This document shows positions 7,101 through 53,532 of a DNA stretch of 64,000 nt, piece by piece. The position numbers and the translations under genes were made by a program. This DNA is from Psychrobacter sp. M13 (GTDB lineage Bacteria > Pseudomonadota > Gammaproteobacteria > Pseudomonadales > Moraxellaceae): assembly GCF_030718935.1 (NCBI RefSeq), contig NZ_CP132194.1, positions 3,038,001 to 3,102,000 of the forward strand. The letters are read 5' to 3'. Under the pieces are notes generated by a model, which saw only the letters and a list, made by a program, of their open reading frames with translations, did not search any database and was not told where the DNA came from. Positions within the stretch are counted from its first letter, which is position 1. Each line of letters opens with the position of its first letter.

Positions 7101-10100
7101 GTACGCTGTTACCAACGGTCACGCTGTCAAGCTCGGTGAGATCACGTGCCATGACTAGGTTGAGTTTGCCATCTTTGCTGTCAACGCGTAGGTTGGCGCC
7201 AGAGGCGGTTGCACTGTCTGCAAGCTCGCCTTCAATACTCAAGGTTTCGTTGAGTGTCTTGGCGATGGTGTCGCCGGTGTTACCAGCAAACTTGAGGCCA
7301 TCCGCTAAGGTGGCAACTTCTTTGTCGTCGATGACGATGCGGGTGATGCCATCTTTGCCATCAACGCCTGCGCTGCCATCTTTGACGGTGATGGTGCCGT
7401 TGGTGCCATCTTTGCCAGTGAGGCCGATTGAGCCATCTTTACCATTTAGAACCACACCTGAGATGCCGTCTGCGCCATTAACGCCAATGGTGCCATCTTT
7501 GCCAGGAAGTCCGTTAGCGCCTGGGCCACCAACGGTGAGGTCGCTGCCTAAGGCGAAGTCGACGTTGTTGTCGGTGATGGTGGTGATGATGCTGCCATCG
7601 GTGCTGTCATAGGTGACGGTTTCGCCAAGTTTGACGTTGTCGTCAGCGCCATTGGCGCCTGCGATGTTAAAGCCTTTGTTGACTTGGGTGTTGGTGTCAT
7701 TTAATTGGCCGACGTTCACCGCATCGGTGTCGTCTGTGCCTGCTGCAACGTTAGTGATTTTGTTGCCAGCTACGTCCACTTGACTACTGGTAAAGGTTGG
7801 GCCACCAGTGATGGTGAGACCTTCTGTGTTGAGTACGCTGTTACCAACGGTCACGCTGTCAAGCTCGGTGAGATCCCGTGCCATGACTAGGTTGAGTTTG
7901 CCATCTTTGCTGTCAACGCGTAGGTTGGCGCCAGAGGCGGTTGCACTGTCTGCAAGCTCGCCTTCGATGCTCAAGGTTTCGTTGAGCTGTTTGGCGATGG
8001 TGTCGCCGGTGTTGCCGGCAAACTTGAGGCCGTCCTCTAAGGTGGCAACCTCTTTGTCGTCGATGACGATGCGGGTGATGCCGTCAACGCCGTCAACCCC
8101 TGGGGTGCCATCTTTGACGGTGATGGTGCCGTTGGTGCCATCTTTGCCAGTGAGGCCGATTGAGCCATCTTTACCATTTAGAACCACACCTGAGATGCCA
8201 TCTGCGCCATTAACGCCAATGGTGCCATCTTTGCCAGGAAGTCCGTTAGCGCCTGGGCCACCAACGGTGAGGTCGCTGCCTAAGGCGAAGTCGACGTTGT
8301 TGTCGGTGATGGTGGTGATGATGCTGCCATCGGTGCTGTCATAGGTGACGGTTTCGCCAAGTTTGACGTTGTCGTCAGCGCCGTTAGCGCCTGCGATGTT
8401 AAAGCCTTTGTTGACTTGGGTGTTGGTGTCATTTAATTGGCCGACGTTCACCGCATCGGTGTCGTCTGTGCCTGCTGCAACGTTAGTGATTTTGTTGCCA
8501 GCTACGTCCACTTGACTACTGGTAAAGGTTGGGCCACCAGTGATGGTGAGACCTTCTGTGTTGAGTACGCTGTTACCAACGGTCACGCTGTCAAGCTCGG
8601 TGAGATCCCGTGCCATGACTAGGTTGAGTTTGCCATCTTTGCTGTCAACGCGTAGGTTGGCGCCAGAGGCGGTTGCACTGTCTGCAAGCTCGCCTTCGAT
8701 GCTCAAGGTTTCGTTGAGTTTCTTGGCGATGGTGTCGCCGGTGTTGCCGGCAAACTTGAGGCCGTCCTCTAAGGTGGCAACCTCTTTGTCGTCGATGACG
8801 ATGCGGGTGATGCCGTCAACGCCGTCAACCCCTGGGGTGCCATCTTTGACGGTGATGGTGCCGTTGGTGCCGTCAGCGCCCGTGAGGCCGATTGAGCCAT
8901 CTTTACCATTTAGAACCACACCTGAGATGCCATCTGCGCCATTAACGCCAATGGTGCCATCTTTGCCAGGAAGTCCGTTAGCGCCTGGGCCACCAACGGT
9001 GAGGTCGCTGCCTAAGGCGAAGTCGACGTTGTTGTCGGTGATGGTGGTGATGATGCTGCCATCGGTGCTGTCATAGGTGACGGTTTCGCCAAGTTTGACG
9101 TTGTCGTCAGCGCCATTGGCGCCTGCGATGTTAAAGCCTTTGTTGACTTGGGTGTTGGTGTCATTTAATTGGCCGACGTTCACCGCATCGGTGTCGTCTG
9201 TGCCTGCTGCAACGTTAGTGATTTTGTTGCCAGCTACGTCCACTTGACTACTGGTAAAGGTTGGGCCACCAGTGATGGTGAGACCTTCTGTGTTGAGTAC
9301 GCTGTTACCAACGGTCACGCTGTCAAGCTCGGTGAGATCCCGTGCCATGACTAGGTTGAGTTTGCCATCTTTGCTGTCAACGCGTAGGTTGGCGCCAGAG
9401 GCGGTTGCACTGTCTGCAAGCTCGCCTTCGATGCTCAAGGTTTCGTTGAGCTGTTTGGCGATGGTGTCGCCGGTGTTGCCGGCAAACTTGAGGCCGTCCT
9501 CTAAGGTGGCAACCTCTGTGTCGTCGATGACGATGCGGGTGATGCCGTCAACGCCGTCAACCCCTGGGGTGCCATCTTTGACGGTGATGGTGCCGTTGGT
9601 GCCGTCAGCGCCCGTGAGGCCGATTGAGCCATCTTTACCATTTAGAACCACACCTGAGATGCCATCTGCGCCATTAACGCCAATGGTGCCATCTTTGCCA
9701 GGTTGTCCATTTGCGCCTGGGCCACCAACCGTGAGGTCGTTGCCAAGAGCGAAGTCGACGTTGTTGTCGGTGATGGTGGTGATGATGCTGCCATCGGTGC
9801 TGTCATAGGTGACGGTTTCGCCAAGTTTGACGTTGTCGTCAGCGCCATTGGCGCCTGCGATGTTAAAGCCTTTGTTGATAGTTTCATTAGAAGCTGTTAG
9901 CTGATCAACGTTGACTGCATCAGTTCCTGCAACCCCTGTAGCGACATTGGTGATAACTTTGCTACCGGCATCAATACCGCTGGTGGTGATGCTTGGGTTG
10001 CCTGCACCTAAGGTGAGACCTGTGTTAGTTAAGATGCTGTCACCAGCAGTAAAGCTGTTTGCGGTGACGGTGTCAACGGTGAGGTCTTTATTCAGTGCAA

Positions 10101-13100
10101 AGTCAACGACGTTGCCCGTTTTGCTGACGGTGATGTTAGTTTCACCATTAGCAGTGCCGATGTCTACGGTGTCGCCCGCTTTGATTGCACCTGTATCAGT
10201 GCCATTACTCTCAAGGTTGAAGCCACCTTGTAAGGTTGTGATGTCACCTGCATTTTTGGTGATGTTTTTGGTGTTGTTGGTGACGTTGGTGTTGGTAGTA
10301 TTGAGCTGGCTACCGTTAATAGCGTCTTTAGAATCTTTGCTGATGTCGCCATCTGCTACATTGGTAATTTTGTTGCCAGCAACGTCCACTTGACTGGTGG
10401 TAAAGGTCGGACCACCGGTGATGGTGAGGCCATCGTTGTTTAATACGCTATTGCCTGTGGTGACGCTAGCTAAGCTGATATTCTGCTTAACTGAGATCTT
10501 AACGCCACCTGCCTCCTCGGTTAGGTCTATGTTGTCGCCGGTGACGAAGTTAGCAGTGTTGTCATTTTTAGTTAAGGTCTTGACGTTTTGACCATCAATT
10601 TGGGTAACGACTGACTGTAGTGAGCTATCGGCTTTATCTAAGCTGTCTTTGGTGTCTTTGCCTAAGGCTACTTGATAGTCGGTAACGTTGTTAGCATCTT
10701 TGGTGCCTTTGGTGACGGTAAGGGCGTCATTATCCGCTGAGCTGACACTTGTGCCATCTGCATTGACGGTGTAAGTGGTCTTGTTGCCATCAACTTTTGT
10801 AGCAACGCTCGCATTGGTGCCGCCCTCTACTACTGCGCTGCCTACTCCTGAGGCAAGGTCATTTAACTGACCGACGTTAACAGCATCATTGATATCAATA
10901 CCTGCAGCGACGTTAGTAATAACTTTGTTGCCAGCGTTGATGCCATCTTTGGTTATACTAGGACCATTAGCAATGCTTAGACCGTTAGTGTTGATTAAGG
11001 TATTGCCAACGTTTACTTGGTTGGCATCTACGCTATTGACGGTGATGTCATCAGCTAGGTTGTAGTTGATTTTGTTGTCACTAACGCTTGCAACTAAATT
11101 GCCATCAGTGTTGGAAAAGTCAACGGTCTCGCCAAGCTTGACGTTGTCTGCATTAATTTGGCTACCATTGGCAGTGATGTTAAAGCCTTTGTTAACTTGC
11201 GTGTTAGTGTCATTCAACTGGCCGACGTTCACCGCATCGGTGTCGTCTGTGCCTGCTGCTACATTGGTAATTTTGTTGCCAGCAACGTCCACTTTACTGG
11301 TGGTAAAGGTCGGACCACCGGTGATGGTGAGGCCATCGTTGTTTAGTACGCTGTTGCCTGTGGTGACGCTAGCTAAGCTGATATTCTGCTTAACTGAGAT
11401 CTTAACGCCACCTGCTTCATCGATTAGGTCTATGTTGTCGCCGGTGACGAAGTTAGCAGTGTTGTCATCTTTAGTTAGGGTCTTGACGTTTTGACCATCG
11501 ATCTGGGTGACGACTGACTGTAGTGAGCTATCGGCTTTATCTAAGCTGTCTTTGGTGTCTTTGCCTAAGGCTACTTGGTAGTCGGTAACGTTGTTAGCAT
11601 CTTTGGTGCCTTTGGTGACGGTAAGCGCACCATTATCCGCTGAGCTGACACTTGTGCCATCGGCATTGACGGTGTAAGTGGTCTTGTTGCCATCAACTTT
11701 TGTAGCAACGCTCGCATTGGTGCCGCCCTCTACTACTGTGTTGCCTATGCCTGCGGTAATGCCTTTTAGCTGATCAACGTTGACCGCGTCAGTTCCTGCG
11801 ACCCCTGTGGCTACATTTGAAATAACTTTGCTACCGGCATCAATACCGCTGGTGGTGATGCTTGGGTTGCCTGCACCTAAGGTGAGGCCTGTGTTAGTTA
11901 AGATGCTGTTACCAGCAGTAAAGCTGTTAGCGGTGACGGTTTTAACGGTGATGTCATCAGCTAAGTCATAGTTAATAGTGTTGTCAGCGGTTTTAGTAAC
12001 CACTAAATTATTATCGTCATTAGTAAAATCGACAGTCTCACCAAGCTTGACGTTGTCTTTGTTCTGACCTTCAGCTGTGATATTGAAGCCTTTGTTAACG
12101 GCTTGGTTTGTGTCGAATAACTGGCTGCCATTGATGGCATCAGTGCTATCTGCGCTGATTTCACCATCTGCTACTCGGATAATTTTATTATTACCGTTAT
12201 CCAGACCAGTATTAGTTAAGCCAACCGATTGGTTTGGACCGAAAGGCGCTGCAATGACCAAACCATTTTTGTCTAAAACAGTATTACCGATAGTCAAATT
12301 ACCTGACTCAGTAAGATCAACATTTTTTGCTAACTGCACAGTTAAAGTGTTGTTTGCATCATTAGCAATAACACCAACATTACCAGTAGTTAGAGTACTT
12401 AGATCAACAGCATCACCTTTTATAGTGATTTTCTCACCAGATTTGCGATTGATAATTACGTTAGTATTATCACCGGCAAAATCTATTCCTTTGTTCAGGT
12501 TATTATTAAGTGCACCTAACTGCTCTTGAGTAGCCGCTTGTCCACCTGTGTAATTCTTTGTAGGATCAAAATCAGTATTAGTTAAACCAGAGATAGTACC
12601 TGTCGTACCATCAACCTTAACAGGATTCCCATTTGGTGATGCCTGACCTACAGTGATAATGTTGCCTAAGCCTAGTTGCACGCCGTCTTTAGTCGTCGTT
12701 GAGGTGATGTTGTCGTCACCTTTAACATTGATGGTGTCACCTAGCTCATATTTATTGGCTGTGCTGCCATCACCAAACTTAATACCTTTAGCAATATCAG
12801 TAGTATTAGTACCTACTTGCGTTAGGGTGTCTTTAGTCTTTTGACCTAAAGCGACTTGGTAGTCGGTATCGTTGTTAGCATCTTTAGTGCCTTTGGTGAC
12901 AGTAAGGGCGTCATTATCCGCTGAGCTTACTGTGGTGCCATCTGCATTGACGGTGTAAGTGGTTTCATTACCATCAACTTCTGTGACAACGCTTGCATTG
13001 GTGCCGCCTTCAACGACTGTTTTACCTATGCCTGCGGTGATGCCTTTTAGCTGATCAACGTTGACTGCATCAGTTCCTGCAACCCCTGTGGCGACATTGG

Positions 13101-16100
13101 TGATAACTTTGCTACCGGCATCAATACCACTTGTGGTGATGCTTGGGTTGCCTGCGCCTAAGGTTAGGCCTGTGTTAGTTAAGATGCTGTTGCCAGCAGT
13201 AAAGCTGTTTGCGGTGACGGTGTCAACGGTGAGGTCTTTATTCAGTGCAAAGTCAACGACGTTGCCTGTTTTGCTGACGGTGATGTTAGTTTCACCATTA
13301 GCAGTGCCGATGTCTACGGTGTCGCCCGCTTTGATTGCACCTGTATCAGCACCATTACTCTCAAGGTTGAAGCCACCTTGTAAGGTTGTGATGTCACCTG
13401 CGTTTTTGGTGATGTTTTTGGTGTTGTTGGTGACGTTGGTGTTGGTAGTATTGAGCTGGCTACCATTAATAGCGTCTTTAGAATCTTTGCTGATGTCGCC
13501 ATCTGCTACATTAGTTAAGGTAACGGTATCAGTGGCACCTGTGCCACCTAGGGTTACGCTGGTTTTGTCAGCATTGTCATACTGTACTGAGTTGTCTGCT
13601 TTATCTAAGCTGTCTTTGGTCTTTTGACCTAAAGCGACTTGGTAGTCGGTATCATTGTTAGCATCTTTGGTGCCTTTGGTGACGGTAAGGGCGTCATTAT
13701 CCGCTGAGCTTACTGTGGTGCCATCTGCATTGACGGTGTAAGTGGTTTCATTACCATCAACTTCTGTGACAACGCTTGCATTGGTGCCGCCTTCAACGAC
13801 TGTTTTACCTATGCCTGCGGTGATGCCTTTTAGCTGATCAACGTTGACTGCATCAGTTCCTGCAACCCCTGTGGCGACATTGGTGATAACTTTGCTACCG
13901 GCATCAATACCACTTGTGGTGATGCTTGGGTTGCCTGCGCCTAAGGTTAGGCCTGTGTTAGTTAAGATGCTGTTGCCAGCAGTAAAGCTGTTTGCGGTGA
14001 CGCTACCTACAGTAATGTCATTTGCAAGATCGTAGTTAATAGTGTTATCAGCGGTTTTAGTAACTACTAAATTATTATCGTCATTAGTAAAGTCAACAGT
14101 CTCGCCAAGCTTGACGTTGTCTTTGTTCTGACCTTCAGCACTGATGTTGAAACCTTTAGCAATATCAGTAGTGTTAGTACCTACTTGCGTTAGGGTGTCT
14201 TTAGTCTTTTGACCTAAAGCGACTTGGTAGTCGGTATCATTGTTAGCATCTTTGGTGCCTTTGGTGACAGTAAGGGCGTCATTATCCGCTGAGCTTACTG
14301 TGGTGCCATCTGCATTGACGGTGTAAGTGGTTTCATTACCATCAACTTCTGTGACAACGCTTGCATTGGTGCCGCCTTCAACGACTGTTTTACCTATGCC
14401 TGCGGTGATGCCTTTTAGCTGATCAACGTTGACTGCATCAGTTCCTGCAACCCCTGTGGCGACATTGGTGATAACTTTGCTACCGGCATCAATACCGCTG
14501 GTGGTGATGCTTGGGTTGCCTGCGCCTAAGGTGAGGCCTGTGTTAGTTAAGATGCTGTCACCAGCAGTAAAGCTGTTTGCGGTGACGGTGTCAACGGTGA
14601 GGTCTTTATTAAGTGCAAAGTCAACGACGTTGCCTGTTTTGCTGACGGTGATGTTGGTTTCACCATTAGCAGTGCCGATGTCTACGGTGTCGCCCGCTTT
14701 GATTGCGCCTGTATCAGTGCCATTACTCTCAAGGTTGAAGCCACCTTGTAAGGTTGTGATGTCACCTGCGTTTTTGGTGATGTTTTTGGTGTTGTTGGTG
14801 ACGTTGGTGTTGGTAGTATTGAGCTGGCTACCATTAATAGCGTCTTTAGAATCTTTGCTGATGTCGCCATCTGCTACATTGGTAATTTTGTTGCCAGCAA
14901 CGTCCACTTTACTGGTGGTAAAGGTCGGACCACCGGTGATGGTGAGGCCATCGTTATTTAATGCGCTATTGCCTGTGGTGACGCTAGCTAAGCTGATATT
15001 CTGCTTAACTGAGATCTTAACGCCACCTGCCTCCTCAGTTAGGTCTATGTTGTCGCCGGTGACGAAGTTAGCAGTGTTGTCATCTTTAGTTAAGGTCTTG
15101 ACGTTTTGACCATCAATTTGGGTAACGACTGACTGTAGTGAGCTATCGGCTTTATCTAAGCTGTCTTTGGTGTCTTGACCTAAGGCTACTTGATAGTCGG
15201 TAACGTTGTTAGCATCTTTGGTGCCTTTGGTGACGGTAAGGGCGTCATTATCCGCTGAGCTTACTGTGGTGCCATCGGCATTGACGGTGTAAGTGGTCTT
15301 GTTGCCATCAACTTTTGTAGCAACGCTCGCATTGGTGCCGCCCTCTACTACAGTTTTACCTAGACCTGCGGTAAAGGATTTAATATCGCCAATATTCGCA
15401 GCATTGGTGTCTACATTGCCACCGCTTGCGACGTTAGTGATCTTGTCACCACCAACACTTAAGCCATTAGCCGTGCTGGTTAAGACCGTGTTGTTGGTCG
15501 CATTGCCTATGGTCACTTGATTGACACTGATGTCTTTAGCTAGATCATAGTTGATGGTGTTGTTAGCGGTTTTAGTGACCACTAAGTTGTTGTCATCATT
15601 AGTAAAGTCGACGGTCTCACCAAGCTTGACGTTGTCTTTGTTCTGACCTTCAGCTGTGATGTTGAAACCTTTGTTGACGGTTTCAGAAACATTGGTAATT
15701 GATTGATTAGTGGCGTTGAGTTGACTGCCATTAATGGCATCAGTGCTATCTGCGCTAATCTTACCGCTAGCCACATTTTTGATTTGACGCTCAGAACCCT
15801 TGGAGCCTACAGAAACTTGAGCGCCAGTATCACCGTCTTCGACACTGCCCGCAAAATTGTATTTAACGCCATTAATAGTAACTGACTTCTCAGAGGTCGC
15901 ATCGCCATCGGTGGTTGAACCTGCACCTAATGCAACTGAGCCCTTTTTGGTCGCTTTAGAAGCTACACCAAATGCAGATGAGGCGTCGCCACTTGCTTCA
16001 GCACGAGTACCAAAAGCCGTAGACAAAGCACCTGACGCTGCAGACTGTACACCAATAGTAATTGCGCCAGCACCTGAAGCTTTAGCTGGTGTATAAAGAT

Positions 16101-18354
16101 TACTGGTATCAACTAAGTCTTTGCCACCAGAGTATTCTTTAAATAGAGCGTTTACAGTGCCGCCATTCAGGGCGCTTGCCGCGGTGCTACCATTTGTATT
16201 TGTTCTTGAAGCATCGTTTAGATCGTCGCCACCTATTGCTATAGATGAATTACCTGCTGAGACAGTGTTGGCACCAATAGCAATGGACTGGTTACCACTA
16301 GAGGTTGTTGGTGCTGAGTCACTTAGATTATCCTGAACACCACCGATAGCGATAGACTGTTGGCCTGAGGCTACAGAGTTATTACCAATAGCTACGCTGT
16401 TGACACCTTGACCTGTGGCACCGCCACCGATAGCAACGGTGTTTGTTCCAGCAGCAGTGGTATCTTTACCTATAGCAATGGCATTCGTACCCGTTGCGCC
16501 TTTGTTATCTGCGTTGCCACCACCTGTAGAGTTTACACTGAAGTATTTAACTGATCCGCCGCCCGATATAATAGCAGCATTAAGCTGGCTTAAGTTGACC
16601 GCATCTTTATCATTAGTACCGTTGGCGACATTGGTAATCTTGTCGCCACCGACACTCAAACCATTAGCCGTACTGGTTAAGACCGTGTTGTTGGTCGCAT
16701 TACCTATGGTGACTTGATTGACACTGATGTCTTTAGCAAGATCATAGTTGATGGTGTTATTAGCAGTTTTAGTGACAACTAGATTATTGTCGTCATTAGT
16801 GAAGTCAACGGTCTCGCCAAGCTTGACGTTGTCTGAGTTTTTGCCCTCAGCGCTGATGTTGAAGCCTTTAGCGATAGTGTTGGTGTTATTGCTAATGTTA
16901 GTTGTGTTGTTCTTGATGTTGGTAGTGTTAGTACCCACTTGCGTTAAGGTGTCTTTGGTCTTTTGACCTAAGTCAACTTTATAGTCGGTGACGTTGTTAG
17001 CATCTTTAGTGCCAGCGGTAACGGTAATCGCATCATTATTTGCTGAGCTAACTTTAGTACCATCAGCATTGACGGTATAAGTGGTCTCATTACCGTCAAC
17101 TTTTGTGGCGACGCTTGCATTGGTGCCACCTTTTACAACTGTTTTGCCAAGACCTGTAGTGAAAGACTTAATATCGCCGATATTTGCGGCATTAGTGTCT
17201 ACATTACCACCACTCTTCACATTGGTGATTTGGTTGCCACCGTTATTTAGACCATTATTAGTCAAGTTAACGTTTTGATTAGGGCCACCTGCAATATTAA
17301 TACCCGCATTGTTAACGACGGTGTTGCCAATCTTAAGATGACCGTCTTTGGTAAGGTCAATCTTTTTAGAGAGCTTAATGGTTAGGGTGTCATGACCGTC
17401 AGCGACCACTCCGATATTATTATCGGTTAGATTAGTAGCACCACCTTCAATCTTTAAGGTCTGACCTAATTTGCGATCAACATTATTGCCAGTATCACCA
17501 GCAAAAGTAATTGGCTTTTTAGTGGCTGAAGATAGTTCATGAGCGACTGAATATAGTTGGCTACCATTGATAGCATCAGTGCTGTGCGCATTGATATTAC
17601 CTGCGGCGACGTTTTTGAGTTGACGTTCATTACCTGCACTACCAAAGGATACCTGATCGCCCGCATGAATATCTTTTGAACCAGCAAAATCGCCAAAAGT
17701 CACATCACCGACTTTGGCACTACTAACACTATTAGCATCTTTATCCGTAACAGAGCCTGCTCCAATAGCAACTGAACCGTGTTTGGTCGCTTTTGCCGCC
17801 TTACCAAGAGCAGTAGCATAGTTTGCTGATGCCTCAGAGTATGAACCAATAGAAGTAGAGCCATATTCTTTCGCTTTTGCCTTATAACCAGAAGCGGTAG
17901 CATATTTTTCTAACGCCTCAGATTGTGCTCCAATTGCGGTAGAAGCGTATGCTTTTGCTTTTGCTATCTTACCGAAGGCTGAAGCATACTGGTCTGTCGC
18001 TTCAGAGTAGGCGCCAACTGCGGTAGCACCATGGCCCCTCGCTTTGGCGTCTTTGCCTATTGCAACACCGTAATCACCAGAGCTGGCGCCATAACCACAA
18101 GTCACCGCAGTAGTTCCTATACAATAGGAATTATTATAGGTTGCGCTAGCTTGCATACCGAACCCTGAGGCTGCCAGTCCTGCACATATCGCACTCAGAC
18201 GTAATGCGTTACTATTTGAGTTGATGACATCCAAAGCGTTAGCACCTGAACTGACCGCTCCGCTTGATGACTTACCTTGGCTCTTGGCATACTCTGCAAC
18301 AGCAGTGAAGCAGCCTAATGAGCGATTCCAAACAACTTTATAATTACGATTCAT
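1138..18354 (-). CDS. Giant trimeric autotransporter adhesin (YadA/Hia/Ata-like), 5,738 aa
   Basis: A type Vc secreted adhesin expected to form a trimeric surface fibre. Residues 1-30 are an extended signal peptide region (MNRNYKVVWNRSLG), followed by a hydrophobic core and a cleavage site near ASA at residue 71. A YadA-like head with many SxAIG repeats spans about 85-205, and a second head spans about 600-825. The long stalk alternates TDAVNVxQL neck motifs with GNxxLxxxGLxI modules. Residues about 2,819-5,258 are ten tandem 244-residue units, each holding collagen-like GxDG segments. The last 90 or so residues form the YadA-type beta-barrel anchor and end in Phe. Two cysteines near the mature N-terminus (residues 78 and 86) are unusual for such fibres. 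A ribosome binding site (agggag) precedes the ATG. The downstream tpgA-like gene supports the assignment. Exact length depends on correct assembly of the repeats. Confidence 0.93.
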   Translation of the reverse strand: MNRNYKVVWNRSLGCFTAVAEYAKSQGKSSSGAVSSGANALDVINSNSNALRLSAICAGLAASGFGMQASATYNNSYCIGTTAVTCGYGASSGDYGVAIGKDAKARGHGATAVGAYSEATDQYASAFGKIAKAKAYASTAIGAQSEALEKYATASGYKAKAKEYGSTSIGSYSEASANYATALGKAAKATKHGSVAIGAGSVTDKDANSVSSAKVGDVTFGDFAGSKDIHAGDQVSFGSAGNERQLKNVAAGNINAHSTDAINGSQLYSVAHELSSATKKPITFAGDTGNNVDRKLGQTLKIEGGATNLTDNNIGVVADGHDTLTIKLSKKIDLTKDGHLKIGNTVVNNAGINIAGGPNQNVNLTNNGLNNGGNQITNVKSGGNVDTNAANIGDIKSFTTGLGKTVVKGGTNASVATKVDGNETTYTVNADGTKVSSANNDAITVTAGTKDANNVTDYKVDLGQKTKDTLTQVGTNTTNIKNNTTNISNNTNTIAKGFNISAEGKNSDNVKLGETVDFTNDDNNLVVTKTANNTINYDLAKDISVNQVTIGNATNNTVLTSTANGLSVGGDKITNVANGTNDKDAVNLSQLNAAIISGGGSVKYFSVNSTGGGNADNKGATGTNAIAIGKDTTAAGTNTVAIGGGATGQGVNSVAIGNNSVASGQQSIAIGGVQDNLSDSAPTTSSGNQSIAIGANTVSAGNSSIAIGGDDLNDASRTNTNGSTAASALNGGTVNALFKEYSGGKDLVDTSNLYTPAKASGAGAITIGVQSAASGALSTAFGTRAEASGDASSAFGVASKATKKGSVALGAGSTTDGDATSEKSVTINGVKYNFAGSVEDGDTGAQVSVGSKGSERQIKNVASGKISADSTDAINGSQLNATNQSITNVSETVNKGFNITAEGQNKDNVKLGETVDFTNDDNNLVVTKTANNTINYDLAKDISVNQVTIGNATNNTVLTSTANGLSVGGDKITNVASGGNVDTNAANIGDIKSFTAGLGKTVVEGGTNASVATKVDGNKTTYTVNADGTTVSSADNDALTVTKGTKDANNVTDYQVALGQDTKDSLDKADSSLQSVVTQIDGQNVKTLTKDDNTANFVTGDNIDLTEEAGGVKISVKQNISLASVTTGNSALNNDGLTITGGPTFTTSKVDVAGNKITNVADGDISKDSKDAINGSQLNTTNTNVTNNTKNITKNAGDITTLQGGFNLESNGTDTGAIKAGDTVDIGTANGETNITVSKTGNVVDFALNKDLTVDTVTANSFTAGDSILTNTGLTLGAGNPSITTSGIDAGSKVITNVATGVAGTDAVNVDQLKGITAGIGKTVVEGGTNASVVTEVDGNETTYTVNADGTTVSSADNDALTVTKGTKDANNDTDYQVALGQKTKDTLTQVGTNTTDIAKGFNISAEGQNKDNVKLGETVDFTNDDNNLVVTKTADNTINYDLANDITVGSVTANSFTAGNSILTNTGLTLGAGNPSITTSGIDAGSKVITNVATGVAGTDAVNVDQLKGITAGIGKTVVEGGTNASVVTEVDGNETTYTVNADGTTVSSADNDALTVTKGTKDANNDTDYQVALGQKTKDSLDKADNSVQYDNADKTSVTLGGTGATDTVTLTNVADGDISKDSKDAINGSQLNTTNTNVTNNTKNITKNAGDITTLQGGFNLESNGADTGAIKAGDTVDIGTANGETNITVSKTGNVVDFALNKDLTVDTVTANSFTAGNSILTNTGLTLGAGNPSITTSGIDAGSKVITNVATGVAGTDAVNVDQLKGITAGIGKTVVEGGTNASVVTEVDGNETTYTVNADGTTVSSADNDALTVTKGTKDANNDTDYQVALGQKTKDTLTQVGTNTTDIAKGIKFGDGSTANKYELGDTINVKGDDNITSTTTKDGVQLGLGNIITVGQASPNGNPVKVDGTTGTISGLTNTDFDPTKNYTGGQAATQEQLGALNNNLNKGIDFAGDNTNVIINRKSGEKITIKGDAVDLSTLTTGNVGVIANDANNTLTVQLAKNVDLTESGNLTIGNTVLDKNGLVIAAPFGPNQSVGLTNTGLDNGNNKIIRVADGEISADSTDAINGSQLFDTNQAVNKGFNITAEGQNKDNVKLGETVDFTNDDNNLVVTKTADNTINYDLADDITVKTVTANSFTAGNSILTNTGLTLGAGNPSITTSGIDAGSKVISNVATGVAGTDAVNVDQLKGITAGIGNTVVEGGTNASVATKVDGNKTTYTVNADGTSVSSADNGALTVTKGTKDANNVTDYQVALGKDTKDSLDKADSSLQSVVTQIDGQNVKTLTKDDNTANFVTGDNIDLIDEAGGVKISVKQNISLASVTTGNSVLNNDGLTITGGPTFTTSKVDVAGNKITNVAAGTDDTDAVNVGQLNDTNTQVNKGFNITANGSQINADNVKLGETVDFSNTDGNLVASVSDNKINYNLADDITVNSVDANQVNVGNTLINTNGLSIANGPSITKDGINAGNKVITNVAAGIDINDAVNVGQLNDLASGVGSAVVEGGTNASVATKVDGNKTTYTVNADGTSVSSADNDALTVTKGTKDANNVTDYQVALGKDTKDSLDKADSSLQSVVTQIDGQNVKTLTKNDNTANFVTGDNIDLTEEAGGVKISVKQNISLASVTTGNSVLNNDGLTITGGPTFTTSQVDVAGNKITNVADGDISKDSKDAINGSQLNTTNTNVTNNTKNITKNAGDITTLQGGFNLESNGTDTGAIKAGDTVDIGTANGETNITVSKTGNVVDFALNKDLTVDTVTANSFTAGDSILTNTGLTLGAGNPSITTSGIDAGSKVITNVATGVAGTDAVNVDQLTASNETINKGFNIAGANGADDNVKLGETVTYDSTDGSIITTITDNNVDFALGNDLTVGGPGANGQPGKDGTIGVNGADGISGVVLNGKDGSIGLTGADGTNGTITVKDGTPGVDGVDGITRIVIDDTEVATLEDGLKFAGNTGDTIAKQLNETLSIEGELADSATASGANLRVDSKDGKLNLVMARDLTELDSVTVGNSVLNTEGLTITGGPTFTSSQVDVAGNKITNVAAGTDDTDAVNVGQLNDTNTQVNKGFNIAGANGADDNVKLGETVTYDSTDGSIITTITDNNVDFALGSDLTVGGPGANGLPGKDGTIGVNGADGISGVVLNGKDGSIGLTGADGTNGTITVKDGTPGVDGVDGITRIVIDDKEVATLEDGLKFAGNTGDTIAKKLNETLSIEGELADSATASGANLRVDSKDGKLNLVMARDLTELDSVTVGNSVLNTEGLTITGGPTFTSSQVDVAGNKITNVAAGTDDTDAVNVGQLNDTNTQVNKGFNIAGANGADDNVKLGETVTYDSTDGSIITTITDNNVDFALGSDLTVGGPGANGLPGKDGTIGVNGADGISGVVLNGKDGSIGLTGKDGTNGTITVKDGTPGVDGVDGITRIVIDDKEVATLEDGLKFAGNTGDTIAKQLNETLSIEGELADSATASGANLRVDSKDGKLNLVMARDLTELDSVTVGNSVLNTEGLTITGGPTFTSSQVDVAGNKITNVAAGTDDTDAVNVGQLNDTNTQVNKGFNIAGANGADDNVKLGETVTYDSTDGSIITTITDNNVDFALGSDLTVGGPGANGLPGKDGTIGVNGADGISGVVLNGKDGSIGLTGKDGTNGTITVKDGSAGVDGKDGITRIVIDDKEVATLADGLKFAGNTGDTIAKTLNETLSIEGELADSATASGANLRVDSKDGKLNLVMARDLTELDSVTVGNSVLNTEGLTITGGPTFTSSKVDVAGNKITNVAAGTDDTDAVNVGQLNDTNTQVNKGFNIAGANGAADNVKLGETVTYDSTDGSIITTITDNNVDFALGNDLTVGGPGANGQPGKDGTIGVNGADGISGVVLNGKDGSIGLTGKDGTNGTITVKDGSAGVDGKDGITRIVIDDKEVATLADGLKFAGNTGDTIAKTLNETLSIEGELADSATASGANLRVDSKDGKLNLVMARDLTELDSVTVGNSVLNTEGLTITGGPTFTSSKVDVAGNKITNVAAGTDDTDAVNVGQLNDTNTQVNKGFNIAGANGAADNVKLGETVTYDSTDGSIITTITDNNVDFALGNDLTVGGPGANGQPGKDGTIGVNGADGISGVVLNGKDGSIGLTGKDGTNGTITVKDGSAGVDGKDGITRIVIDDKEVATLADGLKFAGNTGDTIAKQLNETLSIEGELADSATASGANLRVDSKDGKLNLVMARDLTELDSVTVGNSVLNTEGLTITGGPTFTSSKVDVAGNKITNVAAGTDDTDAVNVGQLNDTNTQVNKGFNIAGANGAADNVKLGETVTYDSTDGSIITTITDNNVDFALGNDLTVGGPGANGQPGKDGTIGVNGADGISGVVLNGKDGSIGLTGKDGTNGTITVKDGSAGVDGKDGITRIVIDDKEVATLADGLKFAGNTGDTIAKTLNETLSIEGELADSATASGANLRVDSKDGKLNLVMARDLTELDSVTVGNSVLNTEGLTITGGPTFTSSKVDVAGNKITNVAAGTDDTDAVNVGQLNDTNTQVNKGFNIAGANGAADNVKLGETVTYDSTDGSIITTITDNNVDFALGNDLTVGGPGANGQPGKDGTIGVNGADGISGVVLNGKDGSIGLTGKDGTNGTITVKDGSAGVDGKDGITRIVIDDKEVATLADGLKFAGNTGDTIAKTLNETLSIEGELADSATASGANLRVDSKDGKLNLVMARDLTELDSVTVGNSVLNTEGLTITGGPTFTSSKVDVAGNKITNVAAGTDDTDAVNVGQLNDTNTQVNKGFNIAGANGAADNVKLGETVTYDSTDGSIITTITDNNVDFALGNDLTVGGPGANGQPGKDGTIGVNGADGISGVVLNGKDGSIGLTGKDGTNGTITVKDGSAGVDGKDGITRIVIDDKEVATLADGLKFAGNTGDTIAKQLNETLSIEGELADSATASGANLRVDSKDGKLNLVMARDLTELDSVTVGNSVLNTEGLTITGGPTFTSSKVDVAGNKITNVAAGTDDTDAVNVGQLNDTNTQVNKGFNIAADNGSDDNVKLGDTVKYTSTDKSITTTVTDNQIDFALNSDLTVGGPGANGAPGKDGTIGVNGADGISGVVLNGKDGSIGLTGKDGTNGTITVKDGSAGVDGKDGITRIVIDDKEVATLADGLKFAGNTGDTIAKQLNETLSIEGELADSATASGANLRVDSKDGKLNLVMARDLTELDSVTVGNSVLNTEGLTITGGPTFTSSKVDVAGNKITNVAAGTDDTDAVNVGQLNATNNSMNKGLNFAGDSGTTVNSKLGDTLNITGGVTDTTKLTGNNIGITANGNNGLTVQLAKDLTGLNSATFGDVKISQTGLDNGGNKIINVADGTIAPDSKDAVNGGQLNATAGSITNVIGGNATNVGGIVTTTDIGGTGKDTIDDAIKAVNTKAAQAKSTVTEGDNIVVTKSTNADGSTDYKVATSKDLNVDSVTAGDNVLNGDGLTVGDTTVKNDGLTITGGDKGDVTLGNAGLNNGGNVITGVGAGKNDTDAVNVGQLNNVVAGANKGFNVTAQGDKSSNVANGGTVDFNNTDGNITVTKPVDSNDISFNLNPNLDLGDKGSVKTGNTVVNNDGVTIKDGPSITTAGINAGGKVVTGVADGVIADGSTDAINGGQLNNFGNVINNSINELGYKIGEVGDDANAGISAAMAMSSIPQSFLPGRSMIGGGVATYNGESAVAVGLSRVSDNGRWVMKLNGTADTQGNAGAAIGAGFHF
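2581..9900 (-). repeat. Ten tandem 732-bp coding repeats in the adhesin stalk
   Basis: The block beginning with ctggccgacgttcaccgc recurs at 2581, 3313, 4045, 4777, 5509, 6241, 6973, 7705, 8437 and 9169, an exact 732-bp spacing (244 codons). Each unit encodes a neck (DDTDAVNVGQL), a collagen-like stretch and a TELDSVTVGNSVLNTEG module. Copies differ at few positions. Variants such as KTLNE against KQLNE show a higher-order arrangement: 3313-5508 and 5509-7704 look like near-identical 2,196-bp triplets. The three copies nearest the N-terminus (7705-9900) form a slightly diverged subgroup with SSQVDV and, mostly, GTPGVDGVDG. Confidence 0.93.
9901..15400 (-). repeat. Interspersed older stalk repeats of the adhesin
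   Basis: A second repeat family encodes GTDAVNVDQLKGITAGIGKT followed by VDGNETTYTVNADGT and TKGTKDANN modules. Copies of its start (ctgatcaacgttgactgcat or close variants) lie near 9,901, 11,770, 13,050, 13,833 and 14,418. Larger blocks, such as 9.91-10.6 kb and 14.43-15.15 kb, are also near-duplicates. Spacing is irregular, unlike the exact 732-bp array. Confidence 0.75.
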
Positions 18355-46766: not shown

Positions 46767-47027
46767 ATGACCCAACAAATCGAACTATTTGATATTGCAA
46801 ATCCTTGTGTTAGCGTCTGCACGAGCAATAAAAAGGGCTATTGCTTTGGCTGCTTGCGTAGTCGTACCGAGCGTCAGCTATGGCTAAGCATGACTAATGA
46901 GCAGCGTCGTGAGGTGCTAAGACTAATAGCAGGCCGCAAACAGCGTATTGAGCAAATGCGACAGCTTAAAGGGCAGCAGTTGGGATTTGATTTTGAGGAA
47001 GTGGTTGAAGTTAGGGAGTTGTTTTAG
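46767..47027 (+). CDS. DUF1289-family small protein
   Basis: An 86-residue protein with the DUF1289 cysteine pattern: C-x3-C, then CFGC (in NPCVSVCTSNKKGYCFGCLR), followed by a basic helical tail. The four cysteines suggest a metal or Fe-S site, although function is unknown. It is alone and divergent from yqiA. Confidence 0.85.
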   Translation: MTQQIELFDIANPCVSVCTSNKKGYCFGCLRSRTERQLWLSMTNEQRREVLRLIAGRKQRIEQMRQLKGQQLGFDFEEVVEVRELF

Positions 47028-47086: not shown

Positions 47087-47797
47087 TCATACAATTAAAC
47101 CATAGTAGTTATTTAGAGCTGTAGCAAGCAAACTTCCAGCTACGCCTAACTCAATCTGCCAACTCGTATTAATTGCCTTAGATAACATTGACTCCATCCA
47201 AGATTTGACTGAAGGACCAAATTTATCCTTTTCAACTATAGAAAAACTTTGATCACTATCAATAGCATCTTTAAGTAAGTCGACGTCACTTCTATCAACT
47301 CCATTTTCCTGTAGAATTTTAGATAAAGTCTCAAAATCATTTTTTAAAATGCTATTCGTTACTTTTTGAGTATTTTCTGAGCCTAACAATATTGTTACAT
47401 TGTCTCCAAATATAGCATTGTTAAAAAGGTTTGAAGCGTCAAATTTTCCAACTGCTTCCTTTAATTCTTTGTCGGATTCTATATCAGAAAACTCAGAATT
47501 TAACTCAAGAACAAAATCTAATAGACGTGATCTTACCTGCATTAGAATATTTGCAACACTAGCTACTGGTATTTCAGACCATGCTCTTTGAATTATAAAT
47601 GAATTAGCCAAACCTTCACCAAGCAACCCATTGAATTCCATTGGTAATGATCTATAAAGCATGACATCATCACTGTCGGTCACCATTTTCTCAATTATAG
47701 CTAATGAATAAGCTATTTTAGCTTCTTCTAACGAATGCCTGAATTCATCATCTAAATGCTTCATAGGAATAGGATGTGAATTTACCTTGACCCCTGC
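47087..47797 (-). pseudogene. 3' part of an AbiTii-family gene interrupted by an IS3 element
   Basis: This fragment encodes the C-terminal 236 or so residues of an AbiTii-domain protein: NSHPIPMKHLDDEF, GLLGEGLANSFIIQRAW and VRSRLLDFVLEL are the landmarks. A helical region and a C-terminal hydrophobic segment (LGVAGSLLATALNNYYG) follow. The AbiTii domain takes its name from the lactococcal abortive infection system AbiT. The 5' part is at 49055-49287. Removing the IS and one copy of the GC duplication joins ...SYA to GVKVNSHP without a frame break, giving 313 codons. No initiation signal of its own is seen, so it is probably not expressed as a useful protein. Confidence 0.85.
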
Positions 47798-47833
47798 TGT
47801 CAAATCCGTACAACTAAACTTGGGAGATTTTAG

Positions 47834-48703
47834 TTACGCAGCCTGACGATAAAAGTCAAACCATACTTGCCTTGGCGTTTTATAGCCCAAGCCCTTTTGA
47901 ATCCTCGTTTGGTTGTAGTACAGCTCAATATAGCCAATGATATCGCTGATCGCTACAAACCTTGTTTTATAGTCTTGGTGATATACCAGCTCATTCTTCA
48001 ATGTGCCCCAGAAGCTTTCTATTGGCGCATTGTCATAGCAGTTGCCCTTACCACTCATCGAGCCTGTAAACTGATGCTGCTTGATGATCTTGTGGTAGGC
48101 ATGACTACAATACTGGCTGCCTCTGTCAGAGTGAACTATTAGCTCTGATCTTGGGTGTTTGTTCTTGATTGCCATATTGAGTGCACGGCAAACTAAATCA
48201 GCGGTCATACGCTTATTGATAGCGTAGCCGACCAGCTCTTTGGTGTATAAATCTTTCACTCCGGCTAAGTACAGCCAGCCCTCATTTGTCCAGATATAAG
48301 TAATATCACTGACCCAAGACTCATTGGGACGCTTAGCATCAAACTTCTGATCCAGCACATTTGGATAGACCAGCTTATCGTGATTGGAGTCAGTAGTGAC
48401 TTTAAAGCGTTTATGACGACGGCACTTGATGTCATGTTCTTCTTTGATACTTCTAACCATGTACAGGCTAATATCATGCCCTTGCTCCGTCAGCTTTGCA
48501 TGCAGTCGCTCAACACCGTAGCGCTCACAAGTTTCGCTGTGAGCGGCTCTAACCAATAGCTCAGACTGGTTACGATGTATCCGCTGGTCGCTGATATCAC
48601 GACTCAGCCAGTCGTAGTAGCTCGATAGCCTAACACTTAGCACGCGGCACATAATGGTAATGCTAAAGAGTGGCTGGTTGTCTTTAATAAAGACGTACTT
48701 CAC
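47834..48703 (-). CDS. IS3 transposase orfB (catalytic, DDE)
   Basis: A 289-residue integrase-core transposase. The triad Asp (WVSDITY), Asp (VHSDRGSQY) and Glu (APIESFWGTLKNE) is complete. An N-terminal HTH_21-like region precedes it. It starts at GTG overlapping the orfA TAG stop by one base. The functional protein is probably the OrfAB fusion made by frameshifting. Confidence 0.95.
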   Translation of the reverse strand: MKYVFIKDNQPLFSITIMCRVLSVRLSSYYDWLSRDISDQRIHRNQSELLVRAAHSETCERYGVERLHAKLTEQGHDISLYMVRSIKEEHDIKCRRHKRFKVTTDSNHDKLVYPNVLDQKFDAKRPNESWVSDITYIWTNEGWLYLAGVKDLYTKELVGYAINKRMTADLVCRALNMAIKNKHPRSELIVHSDRGSQYCSHAYHKIIKQHQFTGSMSGKGNCYDNAPIESFWGTLKNELVYHQDYKTRFVAISDIIGYIELYYNQTRIQKGLGYKTPRQVWFDFYRQAA

Positions 48704-48999
48704 TAACTGTGCTTTGCGAAGTACGCGGTGGCCTTTTTTAGGATCTCTCGTTCCTCCTCGGCAACTTTAAGCTGTCGTTTGAGGCGCTTGTTCTCTTCCA
48801 TCACGGCCATAAGCTGTGGATCGTACTGCTCAGTCCCTTTAAGCTTGCCTTGATTGGCTTTGTTATGCCAATTAGATAAGGTTTGCATCGCTATGCCAAG
48901 CTGCTTTGCGGTCGCTGAAATATTACCGTTGTTGTCCGCTATCTTCTTGACGGCTTCGGCTTTAAATTCGTCGCTGTAGGTTCTTACTTTCTTGGTCAT
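48703..48999 (-). CDS. IS3 transposase orfA (DNA-binding)
   Basis: A 98-residue protein with a helix-turn-helix (YSDEFKAEAVKKI, then GISATAKQLGI-like spacing) and a leucine-zipper-like helix (EENKRLKRQLKVAEEEREIL) used for multimerisation. It is typical of IS3 OrfA and acts as the DNA-binding half or as a regulator of transposition. Confidence 0.94.
   Translation of the reverse strand: MTKKVRTYSDEFKAEAVKKIADNNGNISATAKQLGIAMQTLSNWHNKANQGKLKGTEQYDPQLMAVMEENKRLKRQLKVAEEEREILKKATAYFAKHS
48733..48739 (-). promoter_or_regulatory. Programmed -1 frameshift site (A6G)
   Basis: On the minus strand the heptamer AAAAAAG lies near the end of orfA. A -1 shift there leaves the orfA frame and continues openly (GHRVLRKAQLVKYVF) into orfB. 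This is the usual way IS3 elements make OrfAB. Confidence 0.8.
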
Positions 49000-49054
49000 G
49001 GTAAACTCCTTGTCGAGTCGCTAGTTTACCAAGTTTATCTCTACGGTTTCTTCA

Positions 49055-49287
49055 GCATAGCTCACCTGATAAGCTCCATTTGCTGCCGAAACACGCACTT
49101 GGGCTGGAATAATACGGTAATCAGGTAATTCATCATCTTGGCTATACCCATTCAGTTCTTTATTTACCCATATTACTAATTCTTTGTGCCCCATCTTATG
49201 AAGAAGAACCTTTGTTTTGATCAGAGCATTACTTAGAATACCATCATCAGAACTTAATATTTCAATGATTTCATCTACTAGTTTCAT
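49055..49287 (-). pseudogene. 5' part of the interrupted AbiTii-family gene
   Basis: It encodes the first 77 or so residues (MKLVDEIIEILSSDDG, LHKMGHKELVIWVNKELNGY, LPDYRIIPAQV), an AbiTii N-terminus by family resemblance. The reading frame runs into the IS and stops after about 11 foreign residues, giving an 88-residue product. It starts 55 bp after the HEPN gene on the same strand, so the two were probably co-transcribed. See the 3' part at 47087-47797. Confidence 0.85.
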
Positions 49288-49342
49288 TAATGATTCTCTA
49301 TTATTTATTTAAGACTTGTCTGTGTTTTCTGCTTTAGTTTAG

Positions 49343-50149
49343 TTAATCAATATAGTCTTCGGTAATAAAGTAATACCTTAAAAGATGCTGATCTAGTTTC
49401 AATGCAATTGAACGTAATTGTTTACTCATTATAGTTACTTGACTGATGGAAAATCCTACACTCTCTCCATGTGCTACTTTGTTTCTAGCGTCTCTAACAT
49501 TATGAAACTCTAAAACCTCTGCATCACTTAAGTTTAAATGAAAACCGTCTACTAGAACAGCAGGAATATCATTAGCGCTCATATTAGCTAACTTACTTAA
49601 TAACATTTTAGTACCATACCCAGTAAAAAGATCAGTAGGGAATCGATAACCTGTACTGTCTAGCTTCTTCGATGCTTCTTTATATCGCTGATGATAGGCA
49701 GGTTTATTACCTAACCGAACCTTTTTTTTAGTAAATTCTATTTCATCATCATCTCGCAAAATTTGCTTACGTGCTCTGCTATTAGCTTTTTCAACAAAAG
49801 CGTTTTTTCCTCCATGAAATTCAATTAACTCCTCAATTACATTGGAAACATATGACTCGAAAAAGCTAAAATTACTAATAAGTATGTATCTGGATAGCTT
49901 CGTTTTATAACCTATAGATTTCTCTCTTAACTGTTTTTTCACTCTTTCTTGTTGTTTATCATCAGGAGATTCCAATGCACCATAATAATCAGGTTTTACA
50001 AGTGATGTTACTACCCCTTTATCGTGTAAGGTTAAAGTTCGCTTTAAAGTAGGAACAGCATTACAGACAAGCACAGAAAACTCGAAAGTATCTTGTGTTT
50101 GCTCTTTCCATTTTAAAAATGATTTCGTATAAGCGTTAAGTCTTTTCAA
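49343..50149 (-). CDS. HEPN-motif protein, possible defence RNase
   Basis: A 268-residue mostly helical protein. The motif RNKVAH (residues 222-227, in VRDARNKVAHGES) fits the RX4-6H active site of HEPN-domain RNases. This signature, with a FFESYVSNVIEEL helix near 96-108, resembles MAE_28990/MAE_18760-type HEPN proteins found in defence and toxin-antitoxin loci. It starts at TTG with gagg 8 nt upstream. The AbiTii gene follows at once, so it may be the partner effector or regulator. RNase activity and role are inferred, not shown. Confidence 0.72.
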   Translation of the reverse strand: MKRLNAYTKSFLKWKEQTQDTFEFSVLVCNAVPTLKRTLTLHDKGVVTSLVKPDYYGALESPDDKQQERVKKQLREKSIGYKTKLSRYILISNFSFFESYVSNVIEELIEFHGGKNAFVEKANSRARKQILRDDDEIEFTKKKVRLGNKPAYHQRYKEASKKLDSTGYRFPTDLFTGYGTKMLLSKLANMSANDIPAVLVDGFHLNLSDAEVLEFHNVRDARNKVAHGESVGFSISQVTIMSKQLRSIALKLDQHLLRYYFITEDYID

Positions 50150-50306: not shown

Positions 50307-50332
50307 GCCCCCTTCGCGTTAGCGAAGGGGGC
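50307..50332 (-). terminator. rRNA operon terminator
   Basis: A perfect 11-bp GC-rich stem (gcccccttcgc / gcgaagggggc) with a GTTA loop. On the minus strand it follows the 5S gene and is followed by TTTTCTTT. Confidence 0.95.
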
Positions 50333-50349
50333 AAGTCTAAGAATAGAGA

Positions 50350-50463
50350 GCTGACGATGACCTACTCTCACATGGCCGGAGCCACACTACCATTGGCGCT
50401 AAGACGTTTCACTTCTGAGTTCGAGAAGGGATCAGGTGGTTCCGTCTTGCTATTGTCGTCAGC
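50350..50463 (-). rRNA. rrf: 5S ribosomal RNA
   Basis: About 114 nt with conserved blocks such as CGAACTCAGAAGTGAAACG and GGTAGTGTGG. The ends (GCTGACGA... and ...TCGTCAGC) form the terminal helix. It is the last gene of the rrn operon. Confidence 0.95.

Positions 50464-50585: not shown

Positions 50586-53532
<2,947 letters not shown>

What the first reader, a model, noticed from the sequence alone, without database searches (positions are those of the whole stretch)
47087..50149. HEPN-motif gene plus AbiTii-family gene: a candidate two-gene defence module
A 268-residue protein with an RNKVAH (RX4H) motif typical of HEPN RNases is followed after 55 bp, on the same strand, by an AbiTii-domain gene. 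AbiTii is known from phage abortive infection loci and HEPN proteins are frequent toxins in such systems. The pair sits between a DUF1289 gene and the rrn operon, a plausible insertion spot. I know of no described system made of this exact pair, but that is from memory only.
Basis: partly seen in the sequence, partly recalled or inferred. Interest (0 to 1): 0.78.

Follow-up and report, generated by a model that had tools for sequence, protein, structure and literature searches.

The report
HEPN gene in a ribosomal-operon defence slot
A likely anti-phage RNA-cutting gene sits beside a broken AbiTii gene in a slot just after a ribosomal RNA operon where related bacteria carry different short sets of genes, several of them anti-phage, so the two genes look like interchangeable cargo rather than a fixed pair.

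Summary
The genes are real. 49343-50149(-) is a HEPN_RiboL-PSP protein with RNKVAH. The AbiTii gene is real but broken: a 1277-bp IS3-type element (47788-49064) splits it. A fixed two-gene module is not supported. HEPN's only close relative found (G013, 54% identity; 2 of 105 genus genomes have this subfamily) sits at the same locus without AbiTii; AbiTii's closest relative (G122) lies behind a different HEPN gene with a gene between; three other AbiTii genes precede a NERD-like gene. What the data show is a genus-wide cargo slot: of 60 complete DUF1289-to-5S intervals (80 sites read), 10 are empty (<300 bp) and 50 hold 0.55-5.6 kb of short, diverse cargo (72 clusters, 58 seen once), 93 of 104 ORFs co-directional with rrn; scanned cargo includes Shedu, CAP12/Pycsar TIR, AbiJ-NTD, putative AbiC, DndB, Mrr and HEPN families. 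A second rrn operon (osmC side) behaves alike and shares cargo with the first, AbiTii included. Best reading: HEPN is a probable stand-alone RNase defence effector and AbiTii an independent cargo, both swapped in by homologous recombination with rrn as one arm (inferred). Defence activity and swapping are untested. The rrn-anchored slot is the interesting part.

The parts
46767..47027 (+). DUF1289 gene, conserved core flank of the slot
   Evidence: PF06945 62.1 bits; matched in 96 of 100 genus genomes
47087..47787 (-). C-terminal part of the interrupted AbiTii gene (listed ORF runs to 47803)
   Evidence: PF18864 profile 69-178; 205 of 230 residues identical to the G122 AbiTii
47785..47787 (.). 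3-bp direct repeat (target duplication), left
   Evidence: read by eye with the ends
47788..49064 (-). IS3-type insertion sequence, 1277 bp, 36-bp imperfect terminal inverted repeats
   Evidence: inverted repeats; two full-length copies at 84% and 82% in the same genome
47834..48703 (-). transposase OrfB (rve integrase core)
   Evidence: PF00665 102.6 bits
48703..48999 (-). transposase OrfA (HTH_Tnp_1)
   Evidence: PF01527 54.2 bits
49065..49067 (.). 3-bp direct repeat (target duplication), right
   Evidence: read by eye with the ends
49065..49287 (-). N-terminal part of the interrupted AbiTii gene (listed ORF 49021-49287 reads on into the IS)
   Evidence: PF18864 profile 1-73, 74.3 bits; 63 of 73 residues identical to the G122 AbiTii
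49288..49342 (-). 55-bp spacer between HEPN and AbiTii
49343..50149 (-). HEPN_RiboL-PSP protein, 268 aa, TTG start
   Evidence: PF18735 28.6 bits, cut-off 28.4; 54% identical protein at the same site in G013
49469..49486 (-). RNKVAH (Rx4H) motif, residues 222-227
   Evidence: translation; RNKIAH in G013
50307..50332 (-). intrinsic-terminator-like hairpin after the rrn operon
   Evidence: 11-pair stem, 9 GC, T tail (2 such sites found in the region, 2.3 expected)
50349..50463 (-). 5S rRNA, the other flank of the slot
   Evidence: Rfam RF00001
50586..55640 (-). rest of the rrn operon: 23S, tRNA-Ala, tRNA-Ile, 16S

Best explanation
The HEPN gene and the AbiTii gene are two separate pieces of cargo in an exchangeable slot between a DUF1289 gene and the 3' end of an rRNA operon. 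SHOWN: the slot holds different short cargo in most species examined, mostly read in the rrn direction, with several anti-phage families among it and no integrase family in the part that was scanned; some cargo is shared between two rrn operons. INFERRED: cargo is swapped by homologous recombination between imported DNA and the chromosome, with the near-identical rrn operon as one arm and a core gene as the other. INFERRED from family knowledge: the HEPN protein is a stand-alone, metal-independent RNase (His227 activates the RNA 2'-OH, Arg222 helps) that is kept quiet until infection and then cuts RNA to stop phage growth or the cell. The AbiTii gene was under protein-level constraint until recently and is now inactivated by an IS3-type element, so any present function rests on HEPN alone.
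Confidence: 0.65

Rival explanations
1. A true two-gene HEPN-AbiTii defence module: AbiTii senses or restrains, HEPN cuts RNA.
For: Same strand, 55 bp apart. In G122 a different HEPN gene (DUF4145 26.1 bits over a 23.1 cut-off; PF18735 24.4 bits under its cut-off), a 184-aa gene and AbiTii form a co-directional run after a 5S gene. AbiTii-HEPN fusions are described (PMC3710099 passages). A Pfam Abi_C gene lies three genes upstream of AbiTii on an Acinetobacter plasmid.
Against: G013 has the HEPN alone at the same site. Three AbiTii genes are followed by a NERD-like gene instead (the NERD family call was made on one of them, L048). Of 18 AbiTii loci with neighbours listed, one (G122) has a Pfam-supported HEPN within two genes and one (Agrobacterium) by record annotation only, which Pfam did not support. 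21 of those 70 neighbours were given to Pfam, many but not all of those with an Rx4-6H string, so a HEPN neighbour may have been missed.
Confidence: 0.15
2. The HEPN gene is a toxin of a toxin-antitoxin or addiction unit, or a housekeeping RNA-processing enzyme, not a defence effector.
For: HEPN proteins also serve as toxins of TA pairs (HEPN-MNT entries) and as RNA-processing enzymes (recalled). The gene survives alone in G013.
Against: No partner ORF of 80 aa or more in the G013 slot; present in 2 of 105 genomes, which argues against housekeeping; slot-mates in other species include defence families.
Confidence: 0.15
3. The cargo arrives by a site-specific element, not by recombination in the flanks.
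For: Sharp boundaries at the DUF1289 stop and near the rrn end. One recombinase-like ORF by eye in L075.
Against: No integrase family among Pfam matches of the 67 scanned cargo proteins, only an IS605/TnpB-type transposase; DUF1289 remnants are found with cargo at other rrn operons, as flank recombination predicts.
Confidence: 0.1
4. The variation is an assembly effect of the repeated rrn operon.
For: Contigs often end at rrn; this window's own 23S contains a corrupted stretch.
Against: Seven genomes listed as one contig show the same range, from 98 to 1740 bp (G002, G004, G029, G034, G114, G117, G133); in G013 HEPN lies between DUF1289 and the start of a 5S gene on one contig.
Confidence: 0.03

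Closest known systems
HEPN_RiboL-PSP family (Pfam PF18735; 'Ribo L-PSP-HEPN' in the table of PMC3710099, there called distantly related to AbiF and AbiD)
   Same: Pfam match, Rx4H motif, helical model with the motif in the described place
   Different: No endoRNase L-PSP or other Pfam domain over its cut-off and no ParB among the neighbours; the first 70 residues lie outside the profile match
AbiT (AbiTi/AbiTii), two-gene abortive infection system of Lactococcus
   Same: AbiTii domain by Pfam and PADLOC
   Different: Gene interrupted; the upstream gene is HEPN; whether it resembles AbiTi was not tested. PMC3985639 (passages): of the AbiT proteins expressed in E. coli, C. catus AbiTi was toxic and its AbiTii did not counter it; the Lactococcus ones were not toxic
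AbiTii-HEPN fusions (c2405, Ymh; PMC3710099 passages)
   Same: AbiTii with a HEPN protein
   Different: Separate genes here, HEPN of another family, and no Rx4-6H inside three intact AbiTii proteins
Defence hotspots of E. coli (PMC10121019, passages) and P. aeruginosa cDHS1/2 (named in PMC12629846, passages)
   Same: Fixed core flanks, variable defence cargo
   Different: E. coli hotspots are described as filled by mobile elements, 18 of 41 at tRNA loci, median occupancy 8% (the term 'rRNA' was not found in that main text). Here one flank is an rRNA operon, cargo is 1-5 ORFs without a detected integrase, and 50 of 60 complete sites are filled
Minimal mobile elements of Neisseria (concept recalled; only a search listing seen)
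   Same: Different gene cassettes between the same core genes, exchanged by recombination of flanks
   Different: One flank is multi-copy (rrn), so cargo can also move between rrn operons of one genome

Membership tests
HEPN_RiboL-PSP (PF18735) | Profile match over the curated cut-off | tested here: met
   28.6 vs 28.4 bits; G013 relative 40.5 bits
HEPN_RiboL-PSP (PF18735) | Rx4-6H motif with a polar residue after R | tested here: met
   RNKVAH 222-227; RNKIAH in G013
HEPN_RiboL-PSP (PF18735) | HEPN helical fold with the motif at the end of helix 3 | tested here: inconclusive
HEPN_RiboL-PSP (PF18735) | RNase activity | not testable with these tools
   no assay
AbiTii (PF18864) | Profile match over the curated cut-off | tested here: met
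   74.3 and 67.7 bits in the two parts, cut-off 27.6
AbiTii (PF18864) | One intact coding gene | tested here: not met
   split by a 1277-bp IS
AbiTii (PF18864) | Highly conserved glutamate (PMC3710099) | tested here: inconclusive
   a glutamate in the W-x3-E-x2-GY segment is kept in the 7 intact rows and the window's N part (by eye; one row has LDLETRGY); whether it is the paper's residue was not checked
AbiT two-gene system | AbiTi partner gene | not tested
   no AbiTi sequence compared
Conserved HEPN-AbiTii module | The pair recurs with the same two families side by side | tested here: not met
   No other case in 105 (HEPN) and 100 (AbiTii) genus genomes; nearest is G122, another HEPN under the PF18735 cut-off with one gene between
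Defence hotspot | Fixed core flanks with variable cargo that includes defence families | tested here: met
   with control; enrichment over other accessory loci was not measured

The most novel reading that the evidence does not exclude
Psychrobacter uses the ends of its rRNA operons as docking arms for a shared pool of short defence cassettes: cargo enters next to one rrn operon by transformation and moves between rrn operons of the same and other species, its prevailing orientation letting it be read by leakage from rrn so that defence dose follows growth rate. HEPN and AbiTii are two cassettes of that pool.
Probability: 0.3. Interest if true: 0.75.

Novelty: new variant of a known kind. Interest (0 to 1): 0.52.

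Why it matters
The pair itself is a lesson in not reading neighbours as modules: inside an exchange slot, adjacency is expected by chance. The slot matters more. A multi-copy, near-identical rRNA operon as recombination arm would explain how integrase-free defence genes spread between species, and gives a simple place to harvest new systems: about half or more of the scanned cargo has no Pfam family, it is short, and its position is predictable from two core genes.

Tried and rejected
Fixed HEPN-AbiTii module: rejected as above. AbiTii carrying its own HEPN motif: no Rx4-6H in three intact AbiTii proteins. HEPN relatives: none on plasmids, in phages or in viral contigs; one 30% partial match in genome contigs (L006) was not followed. 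AbiTii: no match in phages or viral contigs. AbiTii fold: model pLDDT 70.6, no confident match in PDB or BFVD, so no mechanism was drawn from it. HEPN model: Foldseek's matches all have E above 0.6; the HEPN entry 2hsb is rank 15 with probability 0.54. Sequence search of solved structures: nothing under E 0.4. The 342-aa Rx4H protein beside the second AbiTii copy (L007) was considered as a HEPN; Pfam gives LprI and no HEPN, left open. Promoter scan: 6 sites in the region, 11.9 expected, none listed between the terminator and the HEPN start. Literature: 'AbiTii' is in 2 held papers, 'RiboL-PSP' in none; listings of searches for rrn-linked defence hotspots showed none, which is weak evidence of absence. 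Only passages of PMC3710099, PMC3985639, PMC11087260, PMC10121019 and PMC12629846 were seen. The tallies do not name the protein and list at most 25 families, so no per-protein defence count is given. An alignment of the 70 AbiTii neighbours was made but not scanned, since the tally would be cut. The PADLOC control left out one of 25 ORFs, the 5738-residue one.

Full report
What is there. On the minus strand, directly downstream of an rRNA operon (5S 50349-50463) and its terminator-like hairpin (50307-50332), lies a 268-residue ORF (49343-50149). Pfam calls it HEPN_RiboL-PSP, 28.6 bits against a cut-off of 28.4. After 55 bp comes an AbiTii gene, but its profile is spread over two ORFs (1-73 and 69-178) with the two transposase genes of an IS3-type element between them. 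The element is 47788-49064: 36-bp imperfect inverted repeats, and two other copies in this genome align from its first to its last base at 84% and 82%. A 3-bp direct repeat flanks it (by eye). Codon comparison of the two parts, each on its own, with the intact G122 gene gives dN/dS 0.127 and 0.118, so the protein was under constraint and the break looks recent.

Is it a pair? HEPN of this subfamily is in 2 of 105 genus genomes. In the other one, G013, it stands at the identical site, DUF1289 - HEPN - 5S, with no AbiTii, and G013 has no AbiTii match in its genome. PF18735 in general matches in 29 of 105 genus genomes, 19 over the cut-off; a local AbiTii profile found AbiTii only in the window's own copy among the loci returned (about 1.5 kb of flank each). 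AbiTii is in 6 of 100 genus genomes and 3 of 369 of the class, own genome included. Intact AbiTii genes sit after tkt and before a NERD-like gene (G113, G133, G039), after uvrA (second copy in this genome), in other settings (G053, G371), and in G122 in a run 5S - HEPN (309 aa) - 184 aa - AbiTii - DUF1289 remnant - osmC-like gene. The G122 HEPN matches DUF4145 over its cut-off and PF18735 4 bits under it. Eleven plasmid loci were read; among all 18 loci a HEPN within two genes is Pfam-supported in one, with 21 of the 70 neighbours scanned. So the two families meet more than once, but not as the same pair.

The slot. DUF1289 matched in 96 of 100 genus genomes. I read 80 of those sites. In 60 a 5S gene follows within the stretch; 16 end at a contig end first; 4 (L075, L106, L122, L126) have over 7 kb without one. 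Of the 60 complete intervals 10 are under 300 bp (96-280), the median is 1710 bp and the longest 5603 bp; 93 of 104 ORFs of 80 aa or more point the same way as rrn, and 8 of the 11 others belong to one recurring gene family of about 300 aa next to DUF1289; proteins of 100 aa or more fall into 72 clusters, 58 of them seen once there. The sign test on 93 of 104 gives 2.5e-17, though related species are not independent. The same-species genome G096 has 91% identity up to the DUF1289 stop and 99.6% from the 5S on, with three entirely different genes between.

Its content. Of 151 cargo ORFs I scanned 67, chosen as cluster representatives. Pfam matches include CAP12/Pycsar TIR (2), HEPN_RiboL-PSP (3, window and G013 among them), Shedu SduA, putative AbiC, RelA/SpoT, DndB, Mrr, AbiJ-NTD4, C5 methylase, FRG and a deaminase; at least 33 of 67 have no Pfam family. 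PADLOC gives strong matches (PDC-S35 2e-95, SduA 4e-83, TIR 2e-46, PDC-S21 3e-66). In 24 other genes of the window PADLOC gives only generic matches, best 1e-12. This is a qualitative contrast with core genes, not with other accessory loci.

More than one rrn operon. This genome has three. The second has a DUF1289 remnant and, between it and 5S, an exonuclease-BRCT gene and a 178-aa gene. The third faces an osmC-like gene (name by recall). Of 22 such loci read (20 fetched, plus this genome and G122) 21 have 5S upstream, with 0.9-4.7 kb of cargo in all 21; 46 of 58 ORFs there run with rrn (my count). In 12 of the 21 a non-transposase cargo protein also occurs on the DUF1289 side of some genome, such as a three-gene run (FRG by eye) at 94, 83 and 77% identity, and AbiTii itself (G122 against the window). 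DUF1289 remnants occur at 2 of the 21. Cargo thus occurs at more than one rrn operon, most simply by recombination with rrn as one arm; no integrase family appeared in the scanned part, while one unscanned ORF of L075 looks like a serine recombinase by eye.

Mechanism. Shown: families, positions, variation, direction, sharing between rrn operons, interruption of AbiTii. Inferred: exchange by homologous recombination after DNA uptake; HEPN as an RNase that acts on infection; AbiTii as sensor or regulator. The direction bias may reflect avoidance of head-on transcription or use of rrn read-through; the terminator-like hairpin between 5S and HEPN argues against strong read-through here.

Identity of the host. 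The first 12 kb of the genome's 29.8-kb second contig match mainly Psychrobacter plasmids (24 of 36 records), so the genus is taken to be Psychrobacter.

Verdict. Real genes, one broken, in a real exchange slot; not shown to be a new two-gene system. The HEPN is a new member of a known family; the rrn-anchored slot is a new variant of the defence-hotspot kind as far as the listings show.

Noticed in passing
window 51147-52302: Inside the 23S gene 1156 bp contain no G and 61% C; the other two 23S copies of the genome have 1072 bp there and match on both sides at 99.8%. A sequence artefact of this one copy.
   Followed up: yes
L187 (G052) and L094 (G017): A three-gene run (one protein FRG-like by eye; FRG is in the Pfam tally) is shared between the osmC-side and DUF1289-side slots of two species at 94, 83 and 77% identity: a recurrent, unnamed candidate module.
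   Followed up: partly
L047, L048, L049: AbiTii directly followed by a NERD-like gene behind tkt in three genomes of the genus: a pair that does recur, unlike HEPN-AbiTii.
   Followed up: partly
L163 2118-3582: Second rrn slot of this genome: RNase_T exonuclease with BRCT plus a 178-aa gene; relatives of the latter lie in four DUF1289-side slots, and L182 shows both genes by their first residues.
   Followed up: partly
L007 5094-7365: Second, intact AbiTii copy of this genome after uvrA, convergent with a 342-aa protein bearing RHIFCH and an LprI domain.
   Followed up: partly
L170 3296-5702: On a Caballeronia plasmid the AbiTii gene also appears split, with an IS4-family transposase gene between the parts.
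   Followed up: no
L168 3343-5921: On a Serratia plasmid AbiTii follows a RES-domain gene with a weak HEPN/RES N-terminal match.
   Followed up: no
window 1138-18354 (-): A single 5738-residue open reading frame, perhaps a giant surface protein.
   Followed up: no
L089, L090, L095, L096, L101, L102, L104, L118, L119: A recurrent protein of about 102 aa lies in the DUF1289-side slot of nine genomes and, at 64-72% identity, in three osmC-side slots.
   Followed up: no
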